Source: Rhodococcus sp. CH91 (GTDB lineage: Bacteria > Actinomycetota > Actinomycetes > Mycobacteriales > Mycobacteriaceae). Taken from it: DNA of 64,000 bases. A model generated the notes under the pieces. It was not told the DNA's origin, ran no database searches, and saw only the letters and a program-made list of their open reading frames with translations. The DNA is taken from the NCBI RefSeq assembly GCF_022554085.1, contig NZ_JAKFYR010000003.1:62001-126000 (forward strand). The letters are read 5' to 3'. Each line of letters opens with the position of its first letter. The first letter of the stretch is position 1. Positions 42,401-61,383 of this stretch are shown here, piece by piece. Position numbers and translations under genes: made by a program.

Positions 42401-42414
42401 TGAAACACGTTCCA
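42401..42414. promoter_or_regulatory. KstR-consensus operator
   Basis: TGAAACACGTTCCA matches the published KstR motif TnnAACnnGTTnnA at every fixed position. It lies in the 221-bp divergent intergenic region, 115 bp from the CoA ligase start and 94 bp from the reductase start. KstR is the TetR repressor of cholesterol catabolism in mycobacteria and rhodococci; the regulator gene itself is not in the window. Confidence 0.65.
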
Positions 42415-45586: not shown

Positions 45587-45708
45587 CGGCAGTCTCCTTC
45601 ATGTGGTTGTCTGCGGGACGGTAGGTCAGTTTCCGGGCCGTGCGGCCCGTGATCCCGATCACCGGGAGAGTACGAGGTCAGGTGCTCGGTTTTCCGGAAA
45701 TGTCCGGA

Positions 45709-46632: not shown

Positions 46633-46680
46633 CTTCGTTCTCGTTTCGTCGACGGAGGGGTGGGGCCGGTTCCGGCCGCT

Positions 46681-47185: not shown

Positions 47186-47728
47186 TTACTCCTGCGGAGA
47201 TCGAGACCGATAGTCGAAGAATCCGGGGGTGTGATCGACGCGCAGACGCGTCAGGGTCCTGTACGCGATCAGCCACACACCGTCGACCCTGCGGTACGTC
47301 TCGTGGTAATGGCCGTATCCGTGCAGGTGTTCCTCGGTCGAGCCGTTGCGCCACCACAACTTGTCTTCCATCGCCCAGACACCGGTCGCCGTCGTGTCCG
47401 AGGTCAATGTGATCTCCGGTGCATGCCCGTGGTGCACGCTGGTCACCGGAACAGGTCCGTCGAGAACACCTTCGATCGCGCGCCTCAGTGCATCCCGTCC
47501 GACCACCGCCGGCCGCCGCGCCGACCCGTCGCCGACCGCAGCACCGAAGGTCTCGCTCACGACATCTTCGGTATGCACGCTGCCGTACAGGTCCCACTGT
47601 TTGGTGTCCATGATGCGCAGCCGCGCGGCGAAGACATTCTCGATCTCCCGGATCGCAAGCGCGCGCTCCGCCGGATCGAGGGTGATCTCTCGTACCGATT
47701 CGGTCGTGCTCCCGCCTCCGCCACTCAT
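47186..47728 (-). CDS. SnoaL/NTF2-fold protein 2
   Basis: A 180-aa SnoaL_4-type protein: IREIENVFAARLRIMDTKQWDLYGSVHTEDVVSE in two helices (written here as positions about 24-57), ALRRAIEGVL, SVHHGHAPEITL and GHYHETYRRVDGVWLIAYRT, the ending typical of the family. The HHGH segment is conserved in many SnoaL_4 dehydratase-like proteins. The ATG overlaps the stop of the preceding gene by 4 bp. Probable isomerase or dehydratase on a ketone ring, inferred from context. Confidence 0.78.
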   Translation of the reverse strand: MSGGGGSTTESVREITLDPAERALAIREIENVFAARLRIMDTKQWDLYGSVHTEDVVSETFGAAVGDGSARRPAVVGRDALRRAIEGVLDGPVPVTSVHHGHAPEITLTSDTTATGVWAMEDKLWWRNGSTEEHLHGYGHYHETYRRVDGVWLIAYRTLTRLRVDHTPGFFDYRSRSPQE

Positions 47729-48258
47729 CGGTCGGCCGCCGACGAGGGGACGGTCTCGGGGTAGACCTGCGCGAACCAGGCGCGCTGGGTGGCGTCGAAC
47801 GTGCCCAGTTCCATTGCACGTCGCCCCCAGGCCTTGATCAGGTCGAGGAAACTCGTGACGTCGTAGATGTCCTCTTGTCTGGAGAACCTGCCGTTCCCGG
47901 CGTAGGTCAAGATGCTGACATGGGGCGCTCCCCACACCGAGCCATCACCGGGATCGCTCATCACGTTGTCGAGCTTGGCCACGATCGTGCCGTTGGTTTC
48001 GTCGATCACATGAAAGTGCTCGGGGAAGGAGACCGTGTGGGAGCCGGGAAATTGGGCGAGGCTCGGCTCTGCCCATTTCCAGATACCCTCTCTCCCTTCG
48101 AGTACGCCGGCCATCTGCTCGTGGTAGACGACATCCTCGGTGAACAGTTCGAGGAAATCCCGCCAGCTTCCCTCCCCCGAACCCGCACGATTCACCGTGG
48201 CGTGCCAGTTTTGATATGCGTTCTCGAGTTCTTCTCTGCTCCAGCTGTTTTCGGCCAT
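47725..48258 (-). CDS. SnoaL/NTF2-fold protein 3
   Basis: A 177-aa protein with LENAYQNWHATVNRAG, WRDFLELFTEDVVYHEQMAG and GREGIWKWAEPSLAQFPG, then IVAKLDNVMSDPGDGS and RQEDIYDVTSFLDLIKAWG. The layout matches SnoaL-like polyketide cyclase/dehydratase proteins and, more distantly, steroid isomerases. It is first of the three SnoaL genes, 76 bp after an SDR gene. Substrate unknown. Confidence 0.77.
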   Translation of the reverse strand: MAENSWSREELENAYQNWHATVNRAGSGEGSWRDFLELFTEDVVYHEQMAGVLEGREGIWKWAEPSLAQFPGSHTVSFPEHFHVIDETNGTIVAKLDNVMSDPGDGSVWGAPHVSILTYAGNGRFSRQEDIYDVTSFLDLIKAWGRRAMELGTFDATQRAWFAQVYPETVPSSAADR

Positions 48259-48334: not shown

Positions 48335-49225
48335 TCATGCCCCGTGCTCGACGGTGATGCCCATGCGTGTGAGCATGGCGTGAGGATCGGCCGGTGGCGA
48401 AAGATCGAGAAGCTGTTGTCCGCGTCGATGCATCGCGGCGATGCACAGGTCGTCGTCGGAGTGGACCCAGAACTCGCCGCGCGCGATCTGCTCGATCATG
48501 TGCTCGGCGGCGACGAGCGGATCGAGTCCCTTCTCGACGTTGTCGCGTTGCATGGCAGCGAACACCGCGTTCGCCGTCGGATTGTCCGTGGGCGCCTCTC
48601 GCTGAGCCGACAGGAAGATCTCGCTCCGGATGGAATGCGGGATCACGGCACTCACCTGGATCGGGGCACCGACGATGGCCAGGTCTTGATGCAGGCACTC
48701 CGTCATCGCCAGTACCGCGTGCTTGCTCACGATGTACGGGGATTGCACCGCAACGGCATTGAGCCCACCCACCGAGGACAGGTTGGCGATGCACGAGGGA
48801 GTTCCTGCGGCGATCATCCGCGGGACGAAGGATCGAAGGCAGTAGAAGACACCGTCGACGTTGATCTGCATCAGCCGCTGCCACCGCTCCCGGTCGATCT
48901 CCCACAGCAGGCCGGACGATTCGATGCCGGCATTGTTCACCAGGAGCTCGACGCTGCCGTGACGATCGAAGATCTCGCTCGCCATCGCCTCGACGGCGTC
49001 GGGGTCTGCGACGTCGACGGCACAGGCTTCCGCCTTGCCTCCCGAAGCGGCGATATCGTCCGCGACCTTCACAGCGCGATCTCCGTCGATGTCCGAGACG
49101 ACGACCGTCATTCCCAGCGACGAGAGGTGCCGCGCCAGACCTTCACCGATGCCGGCGGCTGCGCCGGTCACCACTGCAACGCCCCGGCAGAAACGTTCCC
49201 GCGCACCGTTCGACTGCATCGTCAT
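48335..49225 (-). CDS. Short-chain dehydrogenase, C-terminally extended
   Basis: A 296-aa SDR: TGAAAGIGEGLAR cofactor motif, Asp in VVVSDIDGDRAV suggesting NAD(H), LVNNAGIESSGLL, the catalytic Ser in ANLSSVGGLNAV and YIVSKHAVL with Tyr-x3-Lys. The C-terminus is about 40 residues longer than a minimal SDR. ATG 49225 overlaps the stop of the upstream SDR gene by 4 bp. Probably oxidises a hydroxyl of the cluster's substrate. Confidence 0.85.
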   Translation of the reverse strand: MTMQSNGARERFCRGVAVVTGAAAGIGEGLARHLSSLGMTVVVSDIDGDRAVKVADDIAASGGKAEACAVDVADPDAVEAMASEIFDRHGSVELLVNNAGIESSGLLWEIDRERWQRLMQINVDGVFYCLRSFVPRMIAAGTPSCIANLSSVGGLNAVAVQSPYIVSKHAVLAMTECLHQDLAIVGAPIQVSAVIPHSIRSEIFLSAQREAPTDNPTANAVFAAMQRDNVEKGLDPLVAAEHMIEQIARGEFWVHSDDDLCIAAMHRRGQQLLDLSPPADPHAMLTRMGITVEHGA

Positions 49226-50115
49226 GCCCTCAGTCCGTCCTCGGCGATGTTGGGATTGCACCAGGCCGGTGGCTCGCGGCGAGGCAGTTCGTCCCTGCCG
49301 TCGAGGCTCTTGACCGGTATTCCCTGCGACCACGGGAAGTGCAGGCTGAAACCGACCAGACCGGTACGTTCGGCCGCAGGAAGGGTGCACATCTCGAGAA
49401 CGGTCTGCGCCAGGTACTCCGGCGGCTCGGTTTCGTAGCCTTCGGGCAGCAGCGTGGCAGCACCCGGGGTCATGATCGCCGTGGACGGACCGACAGCATT
49501 GACGGCGATATCGTCGTCGACGAGTTCTGCGGCGAGGCCTTGCGTGAATCGATGCAGGGCAGCCTTCGCCGACGCATAGATCACGTCGCCGGAGGTCTTG
49601 TTGTATTCACGGAACGGCCGGATCGGGCTCATGCCGGTCGACGAACCGATATTGACGATCCACCCGGAACCGGACTTGCGCATGTGAGGAATCGCCGCTT
49701 GCGAGAGCAGGAACGGGACCTTCAGGTAGTGCTCGATCGTCCTGTCGAACGTTTCCTCGCTCATCTTCTCGATCGAGGAGTAATCGGCGAAACCCGCGTT
49801 GTTGACCAGGATGTCGAGGCCGCCGACGGCGTCCACCGCTGCGTCGATCAGTCCCGCGCGCTGGTCGCGGTCCTCGAGATCGGCCGCGATCGGAACCGCG
49901 CGACCGCCGGCCTGTTCTATCAGTTGCACCGTCTCTTCCAGGGTGCCCGCGAGCACATGCTCCTGTCCGTCCCGAACCGACCGGGAAGGGGACATGGAAC
50001 GAGCGGTGACCACTACGGTGGCACCTTCGGATGCGAGACGCTGCGCGATCGCCCGGCCGATACCCCGGCTGCTCCCTGTCACGAGAGCCGTACGTCCGGT
50101 CAGTCGTTGTGTCAT
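49222..50115 (-). CDS. Short-chain dehydrogenase
   Basis: A 297-aa SDR with VTGSSRGIGRAIAQ, Arg in VVVTARSMSPSR (NADP(H) preference likely), ILVNNAGFADYSS, and the active-site block NIGSSTGMSPIRP followed by VIYASAKAALHRF, with Tyr-Ala-Ser-Ala-Lys as Tyr-x3-Lys. The tail is long. It is the first gene of the SDR-SDR-SnoaL3 operon. The shared 19-bp palindrome is 90 bp upstream of its ATG. Confidence 0.85.
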   Translation of the reverse strand: MTQRLTGRTALVTGSSRGIGRAIAQRLASEGATVVVTARSMSPSRSVRDGQEHVLAGTLEETVQLIEQAGGRAVPIAADLEDRDQRAGLIDAAVDAVGGLDILVNNAGFADYSSIEKMSEETFDRTIEHYLKVPFLLSQAAIPHMRKSGSGWIVNIGSSTGMSPIRPFREYNKTSGDVIYASAKAALHRFTQGLAAELVDDDIAVNAVGPSTAIMTPGAATLLPEGYETEPPEYLAQTVLEMCTLPAAERTGLVGFSLHFPWSQGIPVKSLDGRDELPRREPPAWCNPNIAEDGLRA

Positions 50116-50204
50116 ATCGGTTCCTGCTGCCTGTTCGTCTGTGTGCTCGGACTTCTCGTCGAACCACTCCGAAGTTATGCCGCAGCTCGCACGGGCGGAC
50201 CGTT

Positions 50205-50223
50205 CCCTCCCGTTGTGCGGGAG
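50205..50223. promoter_or_regulatory. Shared 19-bp palindromic element, copy A
   Basis: CCCTCCCGTTGTGCGGGAG, the exact reverse complement of the element at 60484-60502. The core is CTCCCG-N5-CGGGAG. It lies 90 bp upstream of the SDR start at 50115 and 11 bp past the stop of the SDR at 50234-51082. Operator for a cluster regulator is inferred from the exact repetition in two cognate promoters. Confidence 0.65.
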
Positions 50224-50233
50224 GTCACGTCGG

Positions 50234-51082
50234 CTACCTCCCCGATCGACGGAACCGAACCAGATAGGACAGGAGCTGACGAACCGGAACCGACCGGGGC
50301 CAGTCGTCGGCACGGAAGTACGCGTCGGAACCGCCGTCGACGAACACCACACTGCCGCACAGGAAATCCGCGGCGTCCGACAGCATGAAGACCGCCCACG
50401 CAGCAAGTTGTCCGGCATCACCGAAGCCACCGACCGGCACGGGGAACGAGCGGATCGCCTTCGCTTCGGACGGCGTGGACAATTGCTTCTCCAGCAGCGG
50501 TGTCATGATCGCTCCCGGCGCCAGAGCGTTGAGCCGGATACCGACGCCCGCCCAGTCGGGTCGCACGGCGGTGCGGCGCACCCATCTGCTGACGGCGATC
50601 TTCGAAGCCGCGTAGATGATCGACGGCGCAACCTTGCCGAACAACCGGACCGATCGGACTGCCTTGTCCGCATCGCCGTTCAGAAACGCCTTGACCGTCC
50701 GGCCCGGAACCGCGGGCGTGGTGGTCGTCGAATTGCTCGAGAACACGACGACCTTGGCGTTGCCCGCTGCCTCGAGGGCCGACCGCCAGCCCGTCAGCAG
50801 GTCGACGACCCCGAAGTAGTTGACCTCCGCGATCAGCCGGGGGCGTTCCGGGCCGGGCGCCGGGCCGAGACCCGCAGCGAGCACGGCGCCGTCCAGCCGG
50901 CCTTCGGCGGCCTCGAGCACGTTCTCGATGGCGCCCTTCCTGCCCTGAGGCGTCGACAGGTCGGCGACGACCTCCGCCTCCTTGACGTCGACACCGATGA
51001 CGGTGTGCCCGGCGGCGCGAAGTTGTTCTGCGACGGCACGCCCCATGCCCGAAGCAGATCCTGTCACCACATAGACGCCCAT
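50234..51082 (-). CDS. Short-chain dehydrogenase, 3-alpha-hydroxysteroid dehydrogenase-like
   Basis: A 282-aa SDR beginning VYVVTGSASGMGRAVAEQL, with IGVDVKEAEVVADLSTPQGR (NAD-type Asp) and the catalytic Tyr-x3-Lys in YAASKIAVSRW. Insertions such as NSTTTTPAVPGRTVKAFLNG before the Tyr are seen in 3-alpha-HSDH/carbonyl reductase relatives. ATG 51082 has a near-perfect GGGAGGAG site. It is divergent from the TetR gene; the AT-rich intergenic palindrome probably controls both. Confidence 0.84.
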   Translation of the reverse strand: MGVYVVTGSASGMGRAVAEQLRAAGHTVIGVDVKEAEVVADLSTPQGRKGAIENVLEAAEGRLDGAVLAAGLGPAPGPERPRLIAEVNYFGVVDLLTGWRSALEAAGNAKVVVFSSNSTTTTPAVPGRTVKAFLNGDADKAVRSVRLFGKVAPSIIYAASKIAVSRWVRRTAVRPDWAGVGIRLNALAPGAIMTPLLEKQLSTPSEAKAIRSFPVPVGGFGDAGQLAAWAVFMLSDAADFLCGSVVFVDGGSDAYFRADDWPRSVPVRQLLSYLVRFRRSGR

Positions 51083-51130
51083 GCCGTCTCCTCCCGTCCC
51101 CGCACGCCGGCCTTCCCGGCGGCTGATATT

Positions 51131-51145
51131 TGACATAATAGGACA
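51131..51145. promoter_or_regulatory. Candidate TetR operator in the SDR/TetR divergent promoter
   Basis: TGACATAATAGGACA, a near-palindrome (5 of 7 positions symmetric) in a locally AT-rich patch, overlapping a TTGACA hexamer on + and a TATTAT hexamer on -. It sits between the SDR start (51082) and the TetR gene. Typical place and size for a TetR operator. Confidence 0.45.
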
Positions 51146-51212
51146 AAAATGGTGTTCTGCGTATGTGCGTCAGGAATCCTCCGAACTTCCAAGGACATAC
51201 ACCGGATCGACG

Positions 51213-51809
51213 GTGGGACGCAGGCGCGGCCGACCGTCGGTCATCGACCCCGAAGCGATCGCCGAGGCGGCTTTCCACCTCTGGTCCCGGCAGGGATACG
51301 CCGACACCAGCTGGAACGACCTGGCCGAAGCGACCGGGGTCAGCGCCCGCACCCTCATCAGGCACTTCTCCGTCAAATCCGCGATCGCCTGGATCGGTGT
51401 CACCCCTGCGACCGAGCGCCTGCGCGCATCTCTGTCCGCCACCTCCGAGACTGCCCCACTGACGGACGCGGTGCGCACCGCGATCGTCGAATCGGTCTCG
51501 CATCGTCCGCGCATCCAGCGAGTCGGGCCTGATTGGCTCCGTCTCATCGCCGGCACACCCGAACTGGCCGCGATGGCGTCGGAGGCGTACCAGCCGTGGA
51601 TCATCGAGCTGGCCGGTTACATCGGCCGGCGAGTCCCCGAAGTGCCGGCAGCGGTCGCGCGCGCGTTGGCGACCGCATACCAGGCCGCATCGTTCGCAGC
51701 CTTGACGGAGTGGGCCGAAGAGGGCGCACACGGGGATCCCGCCGACGCCGTCGACGCGATGTTGCGCTGGATGGACATCGTTCCCCGCTCGTCGGCACAG
51801 TCCGCCTGA
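51213..51809 (+). CDS. TetR-family regulator
   Basis: A 198-aa TetR protein: GRRRGRPSVIDPEAIAEAAF, then WSRQGYADTSWNDLAEATGV and the recognition helix SARTLIRHFSVKS, followed by an all-alpha ligand domain. GTG 51213 is the most likely start, giving the common RRGRP-type N-terminus; a GTG at 51165 is possible and neither has a strong ribosome site. It is divergent from the SDR gene and precedes the OYE gene by 54 bp, so it probably regulates both. Confidence 0.8.
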   Translation: MGRRRGRPSVIDPEAIAEAAFHLWSRQGYADTSWNDLAEATGVSARTLIRHFSVKSAIAWIGVTPATERLRASLSATSETAPLTDAVRTAIVESVSHRPRIQRVGPDWLRLIAGTPELAAMASEAYQPWIIELAGYIGRRVPEVPAAVARALATAYQAASFAALTEWAEEGAHGDPADAVDAMLRWMDIVPRSSAQSA

Positions 51810-51863
51810 ATCAACACCGGACGCCCGAAAGTCCTCTCACAGCCCGAGAACCCGGAGACCACC

Positions 51864-53072
51864 ATGTCGACAGTCCACCCCGAACCAGCGTCCGTTCCTA
51901 CGGTCGATCCACTGGCGCCTGCCCGCCTCGGACCGATCACACTGCGCAACAGAGTCATCAAATCCGCAACCTTCGAGGGTGCCAGCCCCGACGCCCTGGT
52001 CAGCGACCGGCTCATCGACTTCCATGTCAGGGTCGGTGAAGGAGGCGTCGGAATGACCACCGTCGCCTACCTCGCCGTGGCGCCCGAAGGGCGGACCGAG
52101 AAGGATCAGATCTACTGGCGCCCGGAGGCGCTCGACGGGCTCCGGCGTCTCACCGACGCCGTGCACGCCACCGGCGCGAAGGTCTCGGCACAGATCGGCC
52201 ACGCCGGTCCCGTGGCCAACTCCCGATCGAACGGGCTCCCCTCGCTGGCGCCCTCCGCGCGCCCGAATCCCCTGTCCATGAGTATCGACAGGAAGGCGAG
52301 CGAGGACGACATCCGGCGGATCATTGCCGCGCACGGCGAGGCGACACGATACGCCCGCGAGGTCGGATTCGATGCAGTCGAGGTCCACCTCGGACACAAT
52401 TACCTCGCCAGTTCGTTCCTGAGCCCGAAGGTGAACCGCCGCAAGGATCGCTGGGGCGGCTCCCTGGCCAACCGTGCCGAGTTCGCCCGCCGCATCCTCG
52501 CCGCCGTTGCGGAGGCAGCGGACGGTGAGATCGCTGTGCTGGCCAAGATGAACATGGCCGACGGAGTGTCCGGGGGATTCTGGCTGGACGAGTCCCTGCC
52601 GTTCGCGAAGATGCTCGAATCGGACGGTCACCTCGACGCACTCGAACTCACCGGCGGTTCGTCGCTGCTCAATCCCATGTATCTGTTCCGCGGCGACGTA
52701 CCGCTACGCGAGATGGCCGAGACACAGATTCCGATCCTGCAACTCGGGATGAAGATGTTCGGCAACTTCGTCTTCCAGCATTATCCGTACGAACCGCTGT
52801 ACTTCCTCGAGTACGCCCGTCAGTTCCGCGACGAGCTCGACCTGCCGCTCGTGCTGCTCGGCGGCATCACCGATCTCGACGGAATGCAGGTCGCGATGCG
52901 CGAGGGTTTCGAGTTCGTCGCGATGGCCCGAGCACTGCTGCGCGAGCCCGATCTGATCGCACAGATCCAGCGGGACAGGGACACCCGGTCGTTGTGCATC
53001 CACTGCAATCGGTGCGCGGCCAGCATCTTCACGGGCACCCGGTGCCCCTTGGTTCTCGAATCCCACTCCTGA
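51864..53072 (+). CDS. Old Yellow Enzyme-family NADH:flavin oxidoreductase
   Basis: A 402-aa FMN TIM-barrel protein. ARLGPITLRNRVIKSATFEG is the family N-terminus, VSAQIGHAGP and VEVHLGHNYLASSFLSP the FMN/substrate sites, and NRRKDRWGGSLANRAEFA the conserved barrel segment; the C-terminus CIHCNRCAAS has a Cys pattern (CxxCxxC) that recalls the 4Fe-4S site of 2-enoate-reductase-type members but without their second reductase domain. It likely reduces an enone double bond. The start has GGAG 7 bp upstream; a terminator follows. Confidence 0.88.
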   Translation: MSTVHPEPASVPTVDPLAPARLGPITLRNRVIKSATFEGASPDALVSDRLIDFHVRVGEGGVGMTTVAYLAVAPEGRTEKDQIYWRPEALDGLRRLTDAVHATGAKVSAQIGHAGPVANSRSNGLPSLAPSARPNPLSMSIDRKASEDDIRRIIAAHGEATRYAREVGFDAVEVHLGHNYLASSFLSPKVNRRKDRWGGSLANRAEFARRILAAVAEAADGEIAVLAKMNMADGVSGGFWLDESLPFAKMLESDGHLDALELTGGSSLLNPMYLFRGDVPLREMAETQIPILQLGMKMFGNFVFQHYPYEPLYFLEYARQFRDELDLPLVLLGGITDLDGMQVAMREGFEFVAMARALLREPDLIAQIQRDRDTRSLCIHCNRCAASIFTGTRCPLVLESHS

Positions 53073-53080
53073 GAACAGAC

Positions 53081-53119
53081 GAAGGGGCCCCGCTGCAGAT
53101 TCTGCTGCGGGGCCCCTTC
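53081..53119. terminator. Bidirectional terminator between OYE and zinc-ribbon genes
   Basis: Perfect 13-bp stem GAAGGGGCCCCGC / GCGGGGCCCCTTC with a 13-nt loop, in the 55-bp gap between convergent genes. Confidence 0.85.
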
Positions 53120-53127
53120 TGTCACTC

Positions 53128-53388
53128 TCAGTGCAATCGGGGCAGAGATGGACCGTCCGGCAACTCGATGTGTGATTCGGTCAGCACACTTTTCGCCACG
53201 GCGCGGTCGATGCTGTCTCGAAGCGCGCTGCACTCCCGATGGTGCTCACCGGGCGCGAAGCCGCTCCCCGAGATGAGTGGACATTCGGAAGTGTCGGATT
53301 GCCATTGGATCGACGTGTGTGCGGGACTGAATTTCTCGACGAGCACACCCAGTCCGCACTGCTCGCACGCCAGTGCCTGCATCGTCAT
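53128..53388 (-). CDS. Small Cys-rich (zinc-ribbon/ferredoxin-like) protein
   Basis: An 86-aa protein with CEQCGLGVLVEKFSPAHTSIQW at the start (C-x2-C) and two further cysteines in SECPLISGS and HRECSALRD. Too few and unevenly spaced for a classical 4Fe-4S ferredoxin; zinc or a single mononuclear site is plausible. The ATG overlaps the BVMO stop by 4 bp and has GGGGAGG upstream, so it is the last gene of the kshA operon. Electron carrier or assembly partner of the oxygenases is a guess. Confidence 0.7.
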   Translation of the reverse strand: MTMQALACEQCGLGVLVEKFSPAHTSIQWQSDTSECPLISGSGFAPGEHHRECSALRDSIDRAVAKSVLTESHIELPDGPSLPRLH

Positions 53389-55382
53389 GCCGGCCTCCCC
53401 TCCCCGTTCGTGTGCGCGGAGTCGAAGAACTCGAAGTGGTCGGGATTCGGCTCACGCAGCAGGGTCCAGTAGTCGACGAGCCGCCACGGGCACGGCACGA
53501 CGGCGCGTCCTTCGCTGTTCCGGTAGTAGCCGTTGGTCTCCGCACCGGGGTGCACCCACACGGTCTTGTCCAGCGCCTCGTCGACCCTGCGGTTGTACTC
53601 GTCGAGCACATCCTGCCGCACATCCATCGCGTCGTGCCCGGTCTCCACGAGGTACTGCAGACACTCGACGATGTAGTGGACGTGTTCCTCACTGAGGATG
53701 TTGTGGCCGGCACCGTGGTTGGGCGCCGAGTTCGGCCCCGCGGTGACGAAGAGGTTGGGGAAACCGGACACCTGGATGCCCAGATACGCCCGAGGGTCGT
53801 CACCCCCCTTCCACTGCTCGGCGAGGGTACGTCCCTCGGTCCCCACGATGTCGATCGAGGTCGTGAACTCCAGCTTGAAACCCGTCGCGAGAACGATGAC
53901 GTCGGCGGGCACGAAGGTGCCCTCCGTCGTGACCACACCCTCCGGTGTCACCTCCCGGAACGACGCGCGATGCAGGGTCACGTGATCCCGGGTGAGCGCC
54001 GCGAAGAAGCCCGGGTCCTTGACGATCCGCTTGCTGTAGGGACGGAAGTCGGGCGTCAGCTTCTCGATGAGATCCGGACGGTCGGGGAAGCTCGCCTGCA
54101 GGTGGTTCAACGCCGTCTGGAGCACCATCTCGTTCGCCGGCGAGGCCGAGAAGTGCGTCTTCGCCCATTCGGGATCGATGCGTGGCATCACATAGAGGTT
54201 GTCCGAGGCGAACCAGTACGAGCGCAACCGGAACCACTCGTGATAGCGGGGAAGATGGGCCAGTGCCCATTTCTCGCCGTCCGGAACCTGGTTCACGACA
54301 GCCTTCTCGGGGACGATCCAGTGCGGCGACCTGACGACGACGTCGAGTGCCTCCACCTGATCGACGATGCTCGCGACCACCTGGACGGACGTGCATCCCG
54401 TACCCAGAACGACGACGCGTTTACCGGTGAGGTCGAGGCTGTCGTCCCATTCGGCGGTGTGCACGATGGTGCCGCCGAAGGTGTCCATCCCCTCGACATC
54501 CGGAATGTTCGGTGCGTTGAGCATCCCGAGCGCTGTCACGACGGCCTTGGCGTGGTGCACCGCGCGAGTCCCGTCGGCGGACTCGACGGTGACCTCCCAG
54601 ACATGCTGATCGTCGAGCCACCGCGCGGACTGCACCCGCGTGCGGAACGAGATGTTCTCCGTGATTCCGTAGGTGTCCACGACACCCTTCAGGTACTTCT
54701 GGTATTCGGTTCCGGTCGGGTAGTACTTGGACCATCCTGGATTCAGCTCGAACGAATACGAGTAGTAGTGGCTGGGCGTATCGACGGCAGCACCGGGATA
54801 GGTGTTGCGCGACCAGGTTCCGCCGATCTCGTCGCGAGCTTCGAACACACGGTAGGTGAAACCGGCCTGGCCGAGCTTGATCGCTGCGTTGATACCGACG
54901 ATCCCGGCACCGATCACGATCACGGAGAACTCCGGCGCCGGTGTCCGTGTGACCGGGACGCAGCGCTCGGACAGGACGAAGCCCGCTTGCTCACGGAGAA
55001 TCGGAACGAATTCCTCGTCGACGCGCTCCGAGGTGGCAACCGTCGCCATGCGGAGGAACAGATCCGGGTCGGGGACACCCAGCCGATCTCCTGCATCCGG
55101 CGTGAGCAGTTCGTGGGCGCGCGCCCGGATATCTGCGACCACCTCCTCCGGGTACTGTCCCGGTGGCGTCGTCGGACGCGTCCCGGTGCGATAGTGGTTG
55201 CCCGGCTCGCTGATCGTCAGGCGCGCTGCGAACTCGTCGAGCAGGCCGGTGTCGCCGGTCGCGTGGACCAGGGACATGAGAAGCGGTGCCGGATCGCACA
55301 CATCGATGGCGGCGTGCAGCAGAGCCTGGCGGTCTTCCACGTGCTCGGCACCCGCGCCGAGGGACATCGTCTCGGTCATCAT
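53385..55382 (-). CDS. Baeyer-Villiger monooxygenase with N-terminal extension (HAPMO-like)
   Basis: A 665-aa FAD/NADPH enzyme inserting oxygen next to a ketone. An N-terminal helical domain (about 1-145) precedes the FAD Rossmann motif GAGIVG (158-163), the BVMO fingerprint FGGTIVHTAEWD (302-313) and the second nucleotide motif GTGCTS. The extension is the layout of 4-hydroxyacetophenone monooxygenases. The ATG overlaps the stop of the next BVMO gene by one base. The open frame continues upstream to 56531 but that part is antisense-frame noise inside the other BVMO. Confidence 0.9.
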   Translation of the reverse strand: MMTETMSLGAGAEHVEDRQALLHAAIDVCDPAPLLMSLVHATGDTGLLDEFAARLTISEPGNHYRTGTRPTTPPGQYPEEVVADIRARAHELLTPDAGDRLGVPDPDLFLRMATVATSERVDEEFVPILREQAGFVLSERCVPVTRTPAPEFSVIVIGAGIVGINAAIKLGQAGFTYRVFEARDEIGGTWSRNTYPGAAVDTPSHYYSYSFELNPGWSKYYPTGTEYQKYLKGVVDTYGITENISFRTRVQSARWLDDQHVWEVTVESADGTRAVHHAKAVVTALGMLNAPNIPDVEGMDTFGGTIVHTAEWDDSLDLTGKRVVVLGTGCTSVQVVASIVDQVEALDVVVRSPHWIVPEKAVVNQVPDGEKWALAHLPRYHEWFRLRSYWFASDNLYVMPRIDPEWAKTHFSASPANEMVLQTALNHLQASFPDRPDLIEKLTPDFRPYSKRIVKDPGFFAALTRDHVTLHRASFREVTPEGVVTTEGTFVPADVIVLATGFKLEFTTSIDIVGTEGRTLAEQWKGGDDPRAYLGIQVSGFPNLFVTAGPNSAPNHGAGHNILSEEHVHYIVECLQYLVETGHDAMDVRQDVLDEYNRRVDEALDKTVWVHPGAETNGYYRNSEGRAVVPCPWRLVDYWTLLREPNPDHFEFFDSAHTNGEGRPA

Positions 55383-57037
55383 CAGTCCTTCTTCGACGAG
55401 AAATCGGCAGGCGTCCGGATCGCCCCTCGCCGCGCGATCTCGAATCCCTTGTAGCCGGCTGCCGCGATCTCGGCACAGATGGTGCCGTAATTCGCGAAGC
55501 CGCCGATGTACGGCATGAACACTCGTGGTTTGCCGGGAATGTTCGCACCCATGTACCAGGAGTTCGCCGAGGGGAACAGAGTGCCTGCGGCCTTCTCGTT
55601 GCACTCGGCCACCCATTCGTCGACGGCCTGCTCCGTCGCTTCGATCGAGGTGGCATCGTGCTCGTCGAGATGGTCGAGGCAGTCCGAAATCCAGTCCACC
55701 TGCTGTTCGGCCATCAGCACCATGTTCGCCAGGACGCTCGGGCTGCCCGCACCGACCATGAAGAACATGTTGGGGAACCCGTGGGACGCGAGCCCCAGAT
55801 AGGTTCGCGGTCCTGCGGACCATTCCTCTCGGAGGGTACGTCCCCCGCGGCCACGGATATCGATACGTGCCAGCGCCCCCGTCATCGCATCGAACCCGGT
55901 AGCGAAGACGATCATGTCGAGGGGGTAGTGGTGTTCGCTCGTGCGCACGCCGTCTTCTGTGATCTCCGCGATCGGCGTGGTTCGCAGATTCACCAGCGTC
56001 ACATTGTCGCGGTTGAACGTCTCGAAGTATCCGTCGTCGGTGACGATGCGCTTCGTACCGATGGGATGGTCGTTCGGAATCAGCTGGTTCGCGATCTCCG
56101 GGTCTTTCACCATCTCCCGGATCTTCGCTTCGACGTATTCGCGGGCCGTGTCGTTCGCCTGGAGGTTGGTCGTCTGGTCCGGGAACGCTTTCGCGAAGAG
56201 ATAACCTCCGCGCTGCCACCATTCGTCGTAGACCCTGCGACGCTCGGCCTCGTCGACCTCCATCGCGCCCTTCGGGTACGGGGTGAACGGGGTGCCTCCA
56301 CCGCTCATCCGGGCCAGTCGCCGTCGCTCCGGATATGTCGCCTTGACCTCGGCGATCTGCTCGGCGGTCAGCGCGCGGTTGCCGGCCGGGAGCGAATAGT
56401 TGGGGGTCCGCTGGAAGACGAACACGTGGTCGGCTTCCTTCGCGATCAAAGGAATCGATTGGATGCCCGACGAACCCGTTCCGATCACTCCGACACGCTT
56501 GCCGGCGAACTCGACCGGTTCGTGAGGCCATTCACCGGTGTGGTAGGACTCGCCGGCGAAGGTGTCGCGGCCGGGAATGTCGGGCCGGTTCGTCGCCGAC
56601 AGCACCCCCGTTGCCATGATGCAGAATCGCGCCGTGACCGATCGTCCGGTATCGGTGGTGACGGTCCACAGCGCCGACTCCTCGTCGTACACGGTGGACA
56701 CCACCCGGGTGAGGAACTCGAAAGCGCTCCGCAGGTCGTGCCGGTCGGCGACGTGTTCCAGATACGCCAGGATTTCTTCCTGAGTGGCGAACCGCTCGGA
56801 CCACGTCCATTCCTGCTGCAGTTCCTCGTCGAACGAGTACGAGTAGTCGATGCTCTCGACGTCGCAGCGGGCACCCGGATAACGGTTGTGGAACCAGGTC
56901 CCCCCGACTCCCGCGGCGGATTCGAAGCCGTGGACGGTCATGCCGCGCTCTCGGAGCTTGTACACGGCGTAGAGCCCGGAGATGCCCGCACCGATCACGA
57001 CGGCGTCGACATCACTCGAAGGCGTTGCGGGAATCAT
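55382..57037 (-). CDS. Baeyer-Villiger monooxygenase (cyclohexanone-monooxygenase type)
   Basis: A 551-aa type I BVMO without extension. FAD motif GAGISG (16-21), GVGGTWFHNRYPGARCD, fingerprint FAGESYHTGEWP (160-171) and NADPH motif GTGSSG; C-terminal ANSWYMGANIPGKPRVFMPY is typical of CHMO/CPDMO-type enzymes. It would convert a cyclic ketone to a lactone. The ATG overlaps the dioxygenase stop by 4 bp. Having two different BVMOs in tandem suggests two ketone positions or two sequential oxidations. Confidence 0.9.
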   Translation of the reverse strand: MIPATPSSDVDAVVIGAGISGLYAVYKLRERGMTVHGFESAAGVGGTWFHNRYPGARCDVESIDYSYSFDEELQQEWTWSERFATQEEILAYLEHVADRHDLRSAFEFLTRVVSTVYDEESALWTVTTDTGRSVTARFCIMATGVLSATNRPDIPGRDTFAGESYHTGEWPHEPVEFAGKRVGVIGTGSSGIQSIPLIAKEADHVFVFQRTPNYSLPAGNRALTAEQIAEVKATYPERRRLARMSGGGTPFTPYPKGAMEVDEAERRRVYDEWWQRGGYLFAKAFPDQTTNLQANDTAREYVEAKIREMVKDPEIANQLIPNDHPIGTKRIVTDDGYFETFNRDNVTLVNLRTTPIAEITEDGVRTSEHHYPLDMIVFATGFDAMTGALARIDIRGRGGRTLREEWSAGPRTYLGLASHGFPNMFFMVGAGSPSVLANMVLMAEQQVDWISDCLDHLDEHDATSIEATEQAVDEWVAECNEKAAGTLFPSANSWYMGANIPGKPRVFMPYIGGFANYGTICAEIAAAGYKGFEIARRGAIRTPADFSSKKD

Positions 57038-57945
57038 ACGGCCGCTTCCTTCATCTGCTTGGCCCACAACCATTCGTGGCCCCAATAGCTGTCCGCGGTG
57101 ATCTCTTCGGCCGTGTAGTAGGTCTCGTCGACGAGCATGCCTTCGGTGCCGTATTCGATGTCCCATCCGCCGGGGACCTGAACATAGAAGGACACCATCT
57201 TGTCGTTGGTGTGACGGCCCAGCGTGGACGACACCGGGAAGTCCCGGGCGGTGACCTGATCGAGGGCACGACCGACTGCATCGAGAGAGTCGACCTCCAC
57301 CATCACGTGAACGAGTCCGGGGTCTCGATCCTCGGGGCTGGGCATGAGCGCCAGACTGTGATGACGCTGGTTGACACCGAGGAACCGGATGCGCATCGGG
57401 TCCACGCCGGGAGGCGTCGGCATGCGGAACGCTCCTCGCGGAAGGAATTCGAGCACGTCGGTGTAGAAATGGAACGATTCGTCGAAGGCGGTGGTAGGCA
57501 TCACCACGTGCCCCAGGCCTTGTGCACCCGTCACGAATCTCTGTCCGTAGCGCGTGATCACAGGGCTGTGATCGAGAGCCGGCCCGAAGAAGAATTCGAG
57601 CGGAGTACCGCCCGGGTCCTTCATGATCAGCCCGCCTTCGACGCGCCGTCGCTCGCATGTGTCGAACGGCATGGCCTCGAACTCGTATCCCGCGGTGGTC
57701 AGCCGGTCCGCGAGGGACCGCAGAGCGGTACCGTCCCGGACCTCCCAGCCGACTGCGGTCACGCGGTCGGTGTCGCCTGGTTCGACGGTGATCCGAGCCG
57801 GACGTTCGTCCATGCGGAAGTGCAGTGCGTCCTCCTCCGGACCGGTGCCCGGTGCGAAGCCGAGTACGTCGAACCCGAGTTCGCGCCAGCGGGCCATGTC
57901 GGTGGCCTGGACGCGGACGTAGCCGAGGCTTTTGATCTCAGTCAC
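57034..57945 (-). CDS. Extradiol ring-cleavage dioxygenase (HsaC/BphC-type VOC)
   Basis: A 303-aa two-module type I extradiol dioxygenase. The 2-His-1-Glu iron ligands are seen at His146 (GLGHVV), His213 (LVHVMVEV) and Glu264 (WDIEYGTEG), with the catalytic His in NQRHHSLAL near 195; spacing agrees with HsaC/BphC. It would open a catechol such as 3,4-dihydroxy-seco-steroid. GTG 57945 has AAAGGA upstream. It follows the HsaA-like gene by 28 bp, reproducing the hydroxylase-dioxygenase pair of steroid A-ring cleavage. Confidence 0.88.
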   Translation of the reverse strand: MTEIKSLGYVRVQATDMARWRELGFDVLGFAPGTGPEEDALHFRMDERPARITVEPGDTDRVTAVGWEVRDGTALRSLADRLTTAGYEFEAMPFDTCERRRVEGGLIMKDPGGTPLEFFFGPALDHSPVITRYGQRFVTGAQGLGHVVMPTTAFDESFHFYTDVLEFLPRGAFRMPTPPGVDPMRIRFLGVNQRHHSLALMPSPEDRDPGLVHVMVEVDSLDAVGRALDQVTARDFPVSSTLGRHTNDKMVSFYVQVPGGWDIEYGTEGMLVDETYYTAEEITADSYWGHEWLWAKQMKEAAV

Positions 57946-57973
57946 AGAATTCCTTTCGAGTACGCAAGAAGTG

Positions 57974-59158
57974 TCAGATCATCACGCGGAGGGGCCCGTC
58001 CGGAACGTCGATTCCGAGGGACGCCATGGCCGACGCGTGATAGGTGGTGCTGGTGACGTGGATGGCGTGATGCAGGCCGGCGTGCGCGTCCCGCCAGTAC
58101 CGCTGCAACGGATTGTCGACGCGGAGCGCATTCCCACCCGAGCGATCGAAGATCTCGTCCGCAGCACGGACGGCCCGCCAGGCGGAGCGCACCTGGTTGC
58201 GCCGCGACGTGGCACGGGTTTCGAAGTCGACCTCCTTGCCGGAGTCGACGAGATCCCAGATGCGATCGACGTTCGCCAGGAGTTGCTGGCGGGCCGCGTC
58301 GATCTCTGCGGCCGCTTCACCGAGTGCATGCAGGACGTACGGATCGTCCTTGATGGCCGTTCCCGCCGCACCGACGCGCCCGCGCTGATAGTCGATTCCG
58401 GCCGCGAGCACACCTTCACAGATCCCGATGGTGGCGGACGTGATGCCGAGCGGGAACATCGTCGACCACGGCATCCGATAGAGGGTCTCGGTGACGCCGT
58501 ACTCCTTGGCCGCTGTCCCGTCGATCACCGCTCCGCCATCCATCACCCGGTAGTCGGGAATGAACGCGTCCTTCACCACGATGTCCTTGCTGCCCGTGCC
58601 ACGCAGACCGACGACATCCCATGAGTCGTCGACGATCTCGTAATCGGAACGCGGAAGGATCACGTGCAGACTGACGGGCGGCATGATGGGAGCGCCGTCC
58701 TCACCGCCGGCCATCGCGCCGAGGAAGATCCAGTCGCAGTGATCGGTTCCGGACGAGAACTGCCACCGTCCCGACATCCGGTACCCACCGTCGACAGGAA
58801 CCGCGATCCCGCCCGGCATGTACGGCGACGCCTGCCAGGTATCGGCGTCGGTGCCGAGCACTTCGTCCTGCACCTTGGGGTCGGCGAAGGCGAGCTGCCA
58901 CGGGTGGACACCGACGATCCCGCCGACCCATCCTGCAGAACCGTAGATGCTGGCGGTCTTCATCACCGTCTCGGCGAACTCACGAGGGTGTGCTTCGTAC
59001 CCGTTGTACTTCTTCCGCTGCAGCAGCCGGATGATGCCGGACTGCCGGAGACCGGCGGCCACGTCGTTCGTCAGCCGTCCGAGCTGGTCGGAGTCGTCGG
59101 CCCCCGCGCGGATCTCGTCTGCGATGGCGACGATGTTGTCGAGCACTTCGTAACTCAT
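57974..59158 (-). CDS. HsaA-like flavin-dependent monooxygenase (acyl-CoA dehydrogenase fold)
   Basis: A 394-aa oxygenase component of the HsaA/HpaH-type two-component phenol hydroxylases. SIYGSAGWVGGIVGVHPWQ, PYMPGGIAVPVDGGYRMSG and RWQFSSGTDHCDWIFLGAM are HsaA-like, and RATSRRNQVRSAWRAVRAADEI is the C-terminal helix of the fold. It would hydroxylate the phenolic ring to a catechol using reduced flavin from a separate reductase (HsaB), which is not present here. ATG 59158 has TGGAGAAA upstream. Confidence 0.87.
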   Translation of the reverse strand: MSYEVLDNIVAIADEIRAGADDSDQLGRLTNDVAAGLRQSGIIRLLQRKKYNGYEAHPREFAETVMKTASIYGSAGWVGGIVGVHPWQLAFADPKVQDEVLGTDADTWQASPYMPGGIAVPVDGGYRMSGRWQFSSGTDHCDWIFLGAMAGGEDGAPIMPPVSLHVILPRSDYEIVDDSWDVVGLRGTGSKDIVVKDAFIPDYRVMDGGAVIDGTAAKEYGVTETLYRMPWSTMFPLGITSATIGICEGVLAAGIDYQRGRVGAAGTAIKDDPYVLHALGEAAAEIDAARQQLLANVDRIWDLVDSGKEVDFETRATSRRNQVRSAWRAVRAADEIFDRSGGNALRVDNPLQRYWRDAHAGLHHAIHVTSTTYHASAMASLGIDVPDGPLRVMI

Positions 59159-59198
59159 GGTTTCTCCAGGAGGGTATGTAGTGATGCGGAATTGGGGG

Positions 59199-60398
59199 TC
59201 AGGATCCCGATTCGGCGGAGGCCGTCTCACGAGCCCGGGTGAGGTTCGGGGCGAAGGCACTACGTCCGGCAGCGACGTTCTCGTCGACTTCGGCCTGCCA
59301 GCTCGTCAGTGCGCGCGTGGTGTCGATCTCGTACTCGAAGCGGTTGACCATTTCGGGTCGAATGTCCTCGACGTCGACGTAGAACTGTTCGTACCACCGC
59401 CGCAGTTGGTAGACGGGACCGTCCTCCTCACACAGCAGGGGATTGTCGATCCGCGACTTGTTCTTCCAGATCTCGACGTCTTGCTCGAATCCGATCGCGA
59501 TGCCCTGGGCGACGGCCTGGGCGATCTGCTCCGCCTGCTCCGGAGGCATTCCCTCGGGCCTTTCGACGATCACGCCGTACTGCAGGCGGAAGGCCGTCGG
59601 AGAGATGGGGTAATGGCAGTTGATCAGATAGATGTTCGGCGTCGACTCGGGATCACGGCCGCCGCTCCACAACTTGTCGATCATGTACGAGGGACCGTAA
59701 TAGGTTGCGTCGGATTGGTTTTCTTCACTGTAGTTGGTGCTCTGGCTGACGCCGGCGGCATCTTCCCGAGGCCGGGACCGCATCACCTGGGTAGCCGTAT
59801 GGCCTTCGAACACGTTTCGGAAGTAGGTCGGCATCCCGTAATGGACGTAGAAGAAGTGCGCCATGTCGACGACGTTGTCCACGATCTCGCGACAGTGGGA
59901 TCCGGTCACCTCGATCGAGTTCCACACCCAGTCGGTCCAGCCGGGGTCGCCGTAGGTGGGAATCTCGGGAATGGCGAGCTCCGCAGGCGGCGTGCCGCCC
60001 TGCGGGTCGTGCCACACGAAGAGCTGACCGCTCACTTCCGCTACCGGCCATGCCCGGGTGCGGGCAAGCGGCGGGACGCGACGCGCATAGGGAATCTCGG
60101 CGCACTTACCGTCACCGCGCCAGCGCCAGTCGTGGAACGGACAGGCGATGGTGTTGCCCTTCACGGATCCCTGTGCCAGATTTCCGCCCATGTGCCTGCA
60201 GTAGGCGTCGAGAACGTTGATCTTGCCGTCCTCACCGGCGAACACCACGAGCGAGGTCCCGAACGCGTCGACGTGATGGGGCTTGCCGTCTGCGAAATCA
60301 CGCACAAGCCCCACGCAGTGCCATCCTCGCGCATAGCGCTCCGGCGGCGTGCCGACATCGATGGTGCGGACCTGATCTTCGGTGTCTGTGGAACCCAC
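59199..60398 (-). CDS. kshA: 3-ketosteroid 9-alpha-hydroxylase oxygenase KshA homologue
   Basis: A 399-aa Rieske non-heme iron oxygenase. The Rieske ligands are C67-x-H69 (YCRHMGGN) and C86-x2-H89 (CPFHDW); the mononuclear iron site is D178/H181/H186 in DNVVDMAHFFYVHYG with a further Asp near 307. The block CRHMGGNLAQGSVKGNT and the PYARRVPPLARTRAW region are KshA-specific. In the steroid pathway it opens ring B together with KstD. No KshB reductase is next to it. GTG 60398 has CAGGAGG upstream; the shared palindrome is 86 bp upstream. Confidence 0.88.
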   Translation of the reverse strand: MGSTDTEDQVRTIDVGTPPERYARGWHCVGLVRDFADGKPHHVDAFGTSLVVFAGEDGKINVLDAYCRHMGGNLAQGSVKGNTIACPFHDWRWRGDGKCAEIPYARRVPPLARTRAWPVAEVSGQLFVWHDPQGGTPPAELAIPEIPTYGDPGWTDWVWNSIEVTGSHCREIVDNVVDMAHFFYVHYGMPTYFRNVFEGHTATQVMRSRPREDAAGVSQSTNYSEENQSDATYYGPSYMIDKLWSGGRDPESTPNIYLINCHYPISPTAFRLQYGVIVERPEGMPPEQAEQIAQAVAQGIAIGFEQDVEIWKNKSRIDNPLLCEEDGPVYQLRRWYEQFYVDVEDIRPEMVNRFEYEIDTTRALTSWQAEVDENVAAGRSAFAPNLTRARETASAESGS

Positions 60399-60483
60399 GG
60401 TGCCTCCTGGTCGGCTGATCGCGACAACTCACCCGTCGCACAGTGACCAGGATCAAGAACCCGGACGTCGCTGTGATGTCCGT

Positions 60484-60502
60484 CTCCCGCACAACGGGAG
60501 GG
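60484..60502. promoter_or_regulatory. Shared 19-bp palindromic element, copy B
   Basis: CTCCCGCACAACGGGAGGG, exact reverse complement of the element at 50205-50223. It lies 86 bp upstream of the kshA start and 110 bp upstream of the divergent IclR start, so one site may control kshA and the regulator. Confidence 0.68.
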
Positions 60503-60612
60503 TAGTTTCGACGAGCGAGGGACTACCTGGCACGGTCTGTTCGTGGTTGCCGCGCGCGGCGCATCGCAGGTACCGTGACGCGCGTCACACTTGGGGGTGT
60601 CAGGAGGAGAAT

Positions 60613-61383
60613 GTGAGTACGTCACGCACCGATGGGCTGCCCGTGTCCGTCGTGGACCGGATCTCCCTGGTCCTGGAGGCCCTGAGCACGGGCCCGATGA
60701 CGTTGGCCAAGGTCACGGCGCGCACCGGGCTCCCCCGCTCGTCGGCACACCGCCTGCTGGAACAGCTGGCCAATGCGGGCTGGCTCGCCAGATCACCCGA
60801 GCAGACCTACGAGCTCGGAGTGAAGGCGTACGAAATGGGTCAGGCGGCACTCAATCAGAACCGGCTCCTGCATCATGCGCGTCCTCTCATGCATGCCTTC
60901 GCACATCGCTCCGGGTTCACGGTGCAACTGGGAGTCGTCGACCGCGGGGACACCGTCTATCTGGTCAAGGTGAACGGACGCACCTCGGGGTCGACGCCGA
61001 CGGCCGTCGGCCAGCGGGTGCCGGCCCACACGACCGCCCTGGGCAAGGTCATCATGGCGCACTCGGCGGTCTCGTCCCGGACGCCTCCGGACAGTGCCCG
61101 GACCGACTCCGCGACAGCACCTTCGGGACGGAACCGTTTCGACGACGAGATGGCCCAGGTGCGCGATCGTGGCGCCGCATTCGACCGCGGGGAGGCATTC
61201 CCCGGCACGGCCTGTGTCGGGGTGTCCATCGGTCCTCCCGATCACATGTACGGGAATCTCGCAGCGCTGTCCGTGTGCGCCCCCGTGAGCGTGCTGGATC
61301 ATCAGAAGATGATCGGGCCCTTACGGGTTCTGGCCGGCGAGATCTGGCAGCGCTGCGTCGCGACAGATCTTTCGAGGCACTAA
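60613..61383 (+). CDS. IclR-family regulator
   Basis: A 256-aa IclR protein: winged HTH with SVVDRISLVLEALSTGPMTL and TGLPRSSAHRLLEQLANAGW (about 10-60), LGVKAYEMGQAALNQNR, then an effector domain with GDTVYLVKVNGRTSGSTPTA, AHTTALGKVIMAH and PGTACVGVSIGPPD. Start GTG 60613 has a perfect AGGAGG site. It is divergent from kshA and the obvious candidate for recognising the 60484 palindrome; IclR proteins in catabolic clusters often act as activators or repressors sensing pathway acids. Confidence 0.86.
   Translation: MSTSRTDGLPVSVVDRISLVLEALSTGPMTLAKVTARTGLPRSSAHRLLEQLANAGWLARSPEQTYELGVKAYEMGQAALNQNRLLHHARPLMHAFAHRSGFTVQLGVVDRGDTVYLVKVNGRTSGSTPTAVGQRVPAHTTALGKVIMAHSAVSSRTPPDSARTDSATAPSGRNRFDDEMAQVRDRGAAFDRGEAFPGTACVGVSIGPPDHMYGNLAALSVCAPVSVLDHQKMIGPLRVLAGEIWQRCVATDLSRH

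What the first reader, a model, noticed from the sequence alone, without database searches (positions are those of the whole stretch)
50205..60502. Identical 19-bp palindrome controls two distant operons of one catabolic cluster
CTCCCGCACAACGGGAGGG occurs at 60484-60502 and as its exact reverse complement at 50205-50223. The copies sit 86 and 90 bp upstream of the start codons of kshA and of the first SDR of the SDR/SnoaL operon. A 19-base exact match with 6-bp palindromic arms in two functionally related promoters is very unlikely by chance. The divergent IclR gene (60613) next to one copy is the natural candidate regulator. I saw no third copy in the other intergenic regions I read.
Basis: partly seen in the sequence, partly recalled or inferred. 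Interest (0 to 1): 0.78.

Follow-up and report, generated by a model that had tools for sequence, protein, structure and literature searches.

The report
Shared switch for steroid-breakdown genes
A short mirror-image DNA sign sits in front of several steroid-breakdown gene sets in a Rhodococcus bacterium and its relatives, often at a fixed distance from where reading of the genes should begin, and the regulator gene beside it is its likely reader; it is a new example of a known kind of gene switch.

Summary
The 19-mer occurs exactly twice in the window; its core CTCCCG-N5-CGGGAG, as a perfect palindrome, occurs only at these two places in the 4.89-Mb genome. Best reading: operator of the adjacent IclR-family regulator (60613-61383). 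Support: a site centred 93-105 bp upstream of kshA in 29 of 33 loci, some genomes counted twice; within the genus the near-exact motif lies between genes in the 6 of 18 genomes with the IclR ortholog and in none of the other 12; it fits the inner part of the group-1 IclR consensus. New here: a TANNNT box lies 28-32 bp downstream in 24 of 62 site orientations (21 of 31 intergenic sites) against 1 of 82 control orientations. In the kshA-iclR gap one operator is equidistant from two divergent, weaker -10-like boxes. An operator centred near -50 fits an activator better than a blocking repressor. Binding, sign and ligand are untested. No KstR-like site lies at these promoters.

The parts
60484..60502 (+). 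operator copy 1 (17-bp palindrome 60484-60500 plus GG), between divergent kshA and iclR; centre -94 from the kshA start, -121 from the iclR start
50205..50223 (-). operator copy 2 (palindrome 50207-50223) upstream of the SDR/SnoaL operon; centre -100 from the SDR start
45652..45668 (-). one-mismatch operator upstream of kstD (centre -75); a related site with at least 9 of 12 arm bases at -75 to -87 in 7 of 7 loci with a kstD ortholog of at least 69% identity
60449..60454 (-). -10-like box GATCCT for kshA, 29 bp from the operator; NANNNT at 28-30 bp in 22 of 22 distinct kshA promoters
   Evidence: sequence only, no start-site mapping
60531..60536 (+). -10-like box CACGGT for iclR, 30 bp from the operator on the other side; NANNNT at 28-30 bp in 25 of 26 distinct iclR promoters
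   Evidence: sequence only
50172..50177 (-). -10-like box TAACTT for the SDR operon, 29 bp from the operator
45618..45623 (-). -10-like box TACCGT for kstD, 28 bp from the operator; TANNNT at 28-29 bp in all 7 aligned kstD promoters
60613..61383 (+). IclR-family regulator gene (HTH_IclR + IclR_C), proposed reader of the operators
59199..60398 (-). kshA, 3-ketosteroid 9alpha-hydroxylase oxygenase
57974..59158 (-). flavoprotein of the Acyl-CoA_dh_2 family, called HsaA-like from its place and family (name recalled); start approximate
57034..57945 (-). HsaC-like extradiol dioxygenase
55382..57034 (-). Baeyer-Villiger monooxygenase, closest solved relative steroid monooxygenase 4aos; true start not fixed
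53385..55382 (-). second, divergent FMO/BVMO-like protein
49222..50115 (-). first SDR of the SDR/SnoaL operon
48335..49225 (-). second SDR; start approximate
47186..48258 (-). two SnoaL-like genes (47725-48258 and 47186-about 47698)
45709..46650 (-). alpha/beta hydrolase (Abhydrolase_3), candidate steroid esterase; start approximate
43874..45586 (-). KstD-like 3-ketosteroid dehydrogenase

Best explanation
The palindrome CTCCCG-N5-CGGGAG is the operator of the IclR-family regulator encoded at 60613-61383. A dimer (or a tetramer on more than one site) sits about 42-58 bp upstream of the inferred start points of a KstR-independent steroid regulon: kshA with its HsaA-like, HsaC-like and BVMO genes, the SDR/SnoaL/esterase operon, kstD, a LIV-type ABC transporter operon outside the window, and probably iclR itself. 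When the cell meets the inducing steroid (guess: a C21/C19 3-ketosteroid or a ring-cleavage product) the regulator recruits RNA polymerase to promoters with poor -35/-10 boxes. In this genome one operator lies midway between divergent kshA and iclR -10-like boxes and could serve both. Shown: site identity, rarity, conservation, co-occurrence with the regulator gene, conserved sites at several targets, fixed spacing to a -10-like box. Inferred: binding by this protein, activation rather than repression, the start points, the ligand.
For: Rarity. Co-occurrence: IclR ortholog (at least 78% identity) in 6 of 18 genus genomes; CTCCCGYWCAACGGGAG within 1 mismatch in 7 of 18, those 6 plus G013, whose 2 hits are both inside predicted genes. 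Footprint: the site is a conserved block in 6 Rhodococcus kshA-iclR gaps. Position: at least 9 of 12 arm bases at -85 to -109 from kshA in 29 of 33 rows, and at least 8 of 12 at -115 to -149 from iclR in 35 of 42 rows (some genomes appear twice); transporter site at -142 to -146 in the 5 Rhodococcus loci where the gene was found; kstD site in 7 of 7 orthologs of at least 69% identity, aligned block with a TA-box. Consensus: group-1 IclR motif GKTYCRYW3-4RYGRAMC (PMC8222616 passages); the palindrome matches its inner YCRY...RYGR. Spacing: TANNNT 28-32 bp downstream in 24 of 62 orientations (21 of 31 intergenic sites) against 1 of 82 control orientations; in 40 gene-facing orientations 20 hits at 28-31 against 8 at all other offsets 0-79; NANNNT at 28-30 in 22 of 22 distinct kshA and 25 of 26 distinct iclR promoters, against at most 0.41 and 0.23 of sequences in 3-bp windows away from that place. 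kshA has a GTCACA/ATCACA hexamer 16-17 bp before its -10-like box, about 6 bp past the operator.
Against: No binding, expression or start-site data. The palindrome departs from the published consensus at positions 3/15 (C/G for T/A) and its outer bases C1/G17 are the reverse of the published G/C. Three IclR paralogs in the wider region share the recognition helix PRSS(A/T)HR. 4 of 33 kshA rows and 7 of 42 iclR rows fail the positional test, and at least one passing iclR row (L115) looks like chance. Only 6 of 19 rows with an SDR_A ortholog of at least 75% identity have the site before that gene. At least 9 of 12 arm bases within a 300-bp upstream stretch is not rare by itself (second-best scores reach 9). 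In HM1, R. phenolicus and G175 extra sequence separates operator and iclR, so the symmetric arrangement is not universal. Orthologs are not independent; the 28-32 window was chosen; 4 of the 24 TANNNT hits face no called gene within 450 bp; kshA, iclR and transporter promoters lack a TANNNT in the window, and NANNNT is a loose pattern.
Confidence: 0.72

Rival explanations
1. Same operator and same IclR, but as a repressor: bound without steroid it blocks polymerase at all targets and leaves when the ligand binds.
For: Many catabolic IclR regulators repress (recalled). In three of six aligned Rhodococcus kshA-iclR gaps the operator also abuts TAGTTT or TAGTTC, 2 bp away on the iclR side, which would allow self-repression.
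Against: In kshA promoters the operator ends about 6 bp upstream of the -35 position rather than over -35/-10 or the start, and the spacing is held to a few bp over many promoters with poor boxes, more than a roadblock would need.
Confidence: 0.25
2. One or more IclR paralogs of the same steroid region (C22:168.8 kb, 247.5 kb, 248.3 kb) read these sites instead of, or together with, the adjacent IclR.
For: Nearly identical recognition helices; related conserved palindromes flank the paralog at 168.8 kb.
Against: Across the genus the near-exact motif follows the 60613 ortholog; the other 12 of 18 genomes have only IclR relatives below 50% identity and no intergenic hit within 1 mismatch. In Nocardia and Gordonia the sites stay with the ortholog.
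Confidence: 0.2
3. The TetR-family gene at about 51213-51809, near copy 2, is the reader.
For: It lies 1 kb from copy 2.
Against: A TetR relative was found in the fetched regions of only 3 of the 6 motif-bearing Rhodococcus genomes (window, L090, L099; regions are partial); the site stays with iclR; no high-scoring match lies upstream of SDR_C, the gene divergent from TetR (window and L090 rows).
Confidence: 0.04
4. The palindrome is a hairpin (terminator or attenuator), a sigma-factor element or a repeat element rather than an operator.
For: 6-bp GC stem with a 5-nt loop; copy 2 lies just after a stop codon.
Against: No U tract and not among the terminator-like sites; it lies upstream of the -10-like box; the gap of 28-32 bp to that box is too long for a -35 element; only two exact copies genome-wide, without shared flanks.
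Confidence: 0.03

Closest known systems
Group-1 IclR-family operators (PMC8222616, passages and sections 14, 15, 17: CatR, PcaR, PobR, NpdR, OphR and others)
   Same: 17-bp palindrome with inner YCRY-N3-RYGR; regulator gene next to catabolic targets; LIV-type transporter genes also occur in IclR regulogs.
   Different: C/G at positions 3/15 and outer C...G; the word steroid does not occur in that paper's main text.
KstR / KstR2 (TetR) regulons of actinobacterial sterol catabolism
   Same: Control steroid-ring genes of the kshA/kstD type.
   Different: Other protein family and motifs (as given in PMC8228715 passages); no KstR-like site at these promoters.
SRTF1 / SRTF2 of a steroid-responsive island (PMC7062782, passages)
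   Same: SRTF2 is a predicted IclR-family gene beside a ketosteroid dehydrogenase gene.
   Different: The operator work there is on SRTF1 (TetR, 22-bp palindrome, released by progesterone); SRTF2 is not characterised in the passages seen; orthology to our IclR was not tested.
Steroid gene clusters with kshA, hsaC, iclR in R. ruber Chol-4 (PMC6498646, passages)
   Same: A figure legend lists iclR, kshA, hsaC and chnB (cyclohexanone monooxygenase) among steroid genes.
   Different: No operator or regulon of that iclR described in the passages seen.

Membership tests
IclR-family regulator | N-terminal HTH_IclR and C-terminal IclR_C domains | tested here: met
   Pfam PF09339 43.3 bits and PF01614 81.1 bits, both above cut-off
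IclR group-1 operator | 17-18-bp palindrome GKTYCRYW3-4RYGRAMC | tested here: inconclusive
   Length and inner YCRY...RYGR match; positions 3/15 and 1/17 differ (compared by eye with the consensus)
IclR operator | Site conserved with the regulator gene in orthologous loci | tested here: met
IclR operator | Physical binding of the protein to the site | not testable with these tools
   needs EMSA or footprinting
IclR-type activator | Operator upstream of -35 at fixed phase; expression lost in the mutant | tested here: inconclusive
   Fixed spacing to a -10-like box seen; expression not testable here
KstR regulon | TNNAACNNGTTNNA-type site at the promoter | tested here: not met
   10 window matches within 1 mismatch (shuffle mean 4.63; 1 of 100 shuffles reached 10), none at the kshA, SDR or kstD promoters

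The most novel reading that the evidence does not exclude
A whole steroid-catabolism region (about 65 kb of this genome, with further parts near 250 kb) is wired by one operator class read by several paralogous IclR activators with almost the same recognition helix. The operators are held 28-32 bp from the -10 box, and the five central bases (CACAA, TTCAA, CTGCG, CGARG), largely conserved for each target across species, act as the address telling paralogs apart or letting them cross-talk.
Probability: 0.3. Interest if true: 0.7.

Novelty: new member of a known kind. Interest (0 to 1): 0.52.

Why it matters
Steroid catabolism in actinobacteria is described mainly through KstR/KstR2, yet work on R. 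ruber kshA promoters proposed that other regulators must act (PMC8228715 passages). This gives a candidate regulator, a defined operator and a testable regulon for a cluster whose Baeyer-Villiger enzyme is closest to the progesterone-converting steroid monooxygenase. The fixed spacing makes activation versus repression directly testable, and the regulator is a candidate steroid sensor.

Tried and rejected
KstR control: rejected at these promoters. TetR as reader: unlikely. Terminator, repeat and sigma-element readings: rejected (spacing). E. coli-type promoter scan: 0 found against a shuffle mean of 1.4, uninformative in this GC-rich DNA. A PWM trained on 6 Rhodococcus sites separates Nocardia and Gordonia kshA and iclR sites poorly on its own (p about 0.06-0.25; its background set contains the sites themselves), and in many of those loci the best arm match was no better than in shuffles; position and footprint carried the argument there. 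Three paralogous kshA genes (62-63% identity; L089, L098, L101) have no strong match. Loci with IclR relatives of 47-56% identity (L128-L132) and two loci with a BVMO instead of kshA beside iclR (L115, L125) gave no site at the usual kshA/iclR positions; L128 and L129 have CTCTCGCTGATCGGGAG farther upstream. Reading the recognition helix against the published residue-base correlations was dropped because position numbers could not be matched safely. A lookup of activator positions was listed but nothing from it was read. Paper searches for this operator or regulator: no listed row was seen to describe it, but only the listed rows were seen (for example 20 of 31, 10 of 1,655), papers were read only as passages or sections, and most subscription papers are not held.
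Full report
OBSERVATION. Both copies are exact and where stated. In the whole genome (4,890,499 bases, 39 contigs; window = C22:62001-126000) the 17-bp core is exact only at these two places. Among all CTCCCG-N5-CGGGAG palindromes only these two are perfect; with up to one mismatch there are 57 sites, against 21 for the backwards pattern. Eight of the 57 lie in C22:107-171 kb (Poisson P about 1e-6, but the region was chosen afterwards), and 7 of these 8 are intergenic. Of 41 sites examined elsewhere (of 49) 9 are intergenic (Fisher P 0.0009; simple gene caller of my own). So the two copies are the strongest members of a local family of sites.

WHAT THE GENES ARE. The minus-strand operon from 60398 is KshA (Pfam KshA_C, solved relative 4qdc), a flavoprotein of the Acyl-CoA_dh_2 family that I call HsaA-like (name recalled), an HsaC-like dioxygenase (relative 2zi8), a Baeyer-Villiger monooxygenase closest to steroid monooxygenase 4aos (750 bits) and a second FMO-like protein. 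The other operon, from 50115, holds two SDRs, two SnoaL-like proteins and an alpha/beta hydrolase, followed by a KstD. A pathway for C21 keto-steroids (BVMO, then esterase, then SDR, with ring enzymes) is my inference; the activity of the Rhodococcus steroid monooxygenase on progesterone is stated in PMC12239570 (passages).

CONSERVATION. A named-genome search for the IclR gave 20 loci, one of them distant (30% identity). In 6 aligned Rhodococcus kshA-iclR gaps the palindrome is a conserved block (G004 has CTCCCGAAGAGCGGGAG). With 22 further loci, a kshA-side site with at least 9 of 12 arm bases at -85 to -109 is present in 29 of 33 rows (misses L028, L031, L038, L127), and an iclR-side site with at least 8 of 12 at -115 to -149 in 35 of 42 (misses L021, L022, L094, L099, L111, L125, L127; L115 passes at chance level). 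Several genomes appear under two handles; distinct promoter sequences number 22 (kshA) and 26 (iclR). In most of the Nocardia and Gordonia loci each promoter has its own copy; in the rhodococci a single copy lies between the two genes. In a draw of 401 family genomes the IclR ortholog is in 27 at E up to 1e-70.

CO-OCCURRENCE. Close IclR orthologs: 6 of 18 genus genomes. Motif within one mismatch of CTCCCGYWCAACGGGAG: 7 of 18, the same six plus G013, whose two hits lie inside predicted genes.

WIDER REGULON. kstD: a site with at least 9 of 12 arm bases at -75 to -87 in 7 of 7 loci with orthologs of at least 69% identity; absent at a 68% copy in R. phenolicus that appears as two rows. That threshold alone is loose; the aligned block and the TA-box 28-29 bp downstream in all seven carry it. 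ABC transporter (binding protein, fused permease/ATPase, ATPase): site at -142 to -146 in the 5 Rhodococcus loci where the gene was found; in this genome it is C22:140742, 14.7 kb past the window. SDR operon: 6 of 19 rows with an SDR_A ortholog of at least 75% identity have the site 88-100 bp before SDR_A; in HM1 and R. phenolicus a site lies 50-51 bp before SnoaL2.

SPACING. After first seeing a TANNNT box at a constant distance in kstD, SDR_A and SnoaL2 promoters, I tested every site with at least 11 of 12 arm bases in the window, L088, L089, L108 and L090-L105 (not L106, L107, L109, L110). TANNNT starts 28-32 bp past the operator in 24 of 62 orientations (21 of 31 intergenic sites), against 1 of 82 orientations at non-region sites and 0.9% of intergenic 5-bp windows. 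Of the 31 sites, 13 were not shown and all 13 have the box (15 of 15 with two shown there only in the other direction; my count); several of the 13 are orthologous to each other, so independent promoters are fewer. In the 40 gene-facing orientations 20 hits fall at 28-31 and 8 at all other offsets 0-79; the other 22 orientations, with no called gene within 450 bp, hold 4 hits at 28-32. In this genome alone 5 of 9 gene-facing orientations have it. kshA and iclR promoters lack TANNNT there but have NANNNT at 28-30 (22 of 22 and 25 of 26 distinct sequences), and the transporter has CATAAT at 30 (5 of 5). If these are -10 boxes, the operator spans about -58 to -42.

MECHANISM. An operator just upstream of the -35 region, at nearly constant phase, before promoters with poor boxes, is what I would expect of an activator that touches RNA polymerase; this is inference, and the comparison with other IclR activators is recalled. 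Repression remains the main rival. The IclR paralogs at C22:168.8, 247.5 and 248.3 kb share the helix PRSS(A/T)HR; of the 30 HTH matches of this genome printed (33 found) only these and our IclR have exactly that helix.

KNOWN CONTEXT. PMC8222616 (passages, sections 14, 15, 17) gives the group-1 motif; our site fits its inner part only. PMC8228715 (passages) argues for unknown, non-KstR regulators of kshA genes in R. ruber. PMC7062782 (passages) reports an IclR-family gene, SRTF2, in a steroid-responsive island. I saw no paper describing this operator in the searches named in Tried and rejected.

CHANGES AT CHECKING. Mended: spacing now compared on one unit (orientations), the count of sites not seen beforehand (13 of 13), the iclR spacing window, the -35 spacing, the site range before kshA, and wording on the consensus and on shared operators.

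Noticed in passing
60575-60588: GTGACGCGCGTCAC, a 14-bp palindrome of CRP/GlxR type (GTGA-N6-TCAC; family recalled), just before iclR; kept in 5 of 6 aligned Rhodococcus gaps, and a GTGA-N6-TCAC site is in 5 of 5 aligned transporter promoters. Suggests a second, cAMP-type input. By count alone the pattern is not rare (4 in the window, 1.33 expected).
   Followed up: partly
42401-42414: The window's only exact TNNAACNNGTTNNA match (KstR-like), in the gap between predicted genes ending at 42286 and starting at 42508.
   Followed up: no
L109:7217-11005 (C22:245.2-249.0 kb): Second HsaA-like/HsaC-like pair followed by two tandem IclR genes, with another kshA-like gene at L109:12541-13677 and TTTCCGTTCAACGGGAC at 7059 (assigned by sequence likeness of the printed starts).
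   Followed up: partly
L089:15367, L092:6833, L098:458, L101:11707: CTCCCGCGARGCGGGA(T/G), conserved in four genomes 382-383 bp before a predicted 213-aa gene (in this genome 60 bp after a second kshA), with TANNNT at 29-30 bp.
   Followed up: partly
L108:4280, L098:7094, L101:18679: Palindromes with a TANNNT box at 28-31 bp on both sides, i.e. another symmetric two-way operator; in this genome between divergent genes near an IclR paralog. The G004 counterpart (L092:12601) has the box on one side only.
   Followed up: partly
53081-53119: Near-perfect hairpin, 19-nt arms with 1 nt between them, where the convergent OYE and FMO genes meet; probably a bidirectional terminator.
   Followed up: no
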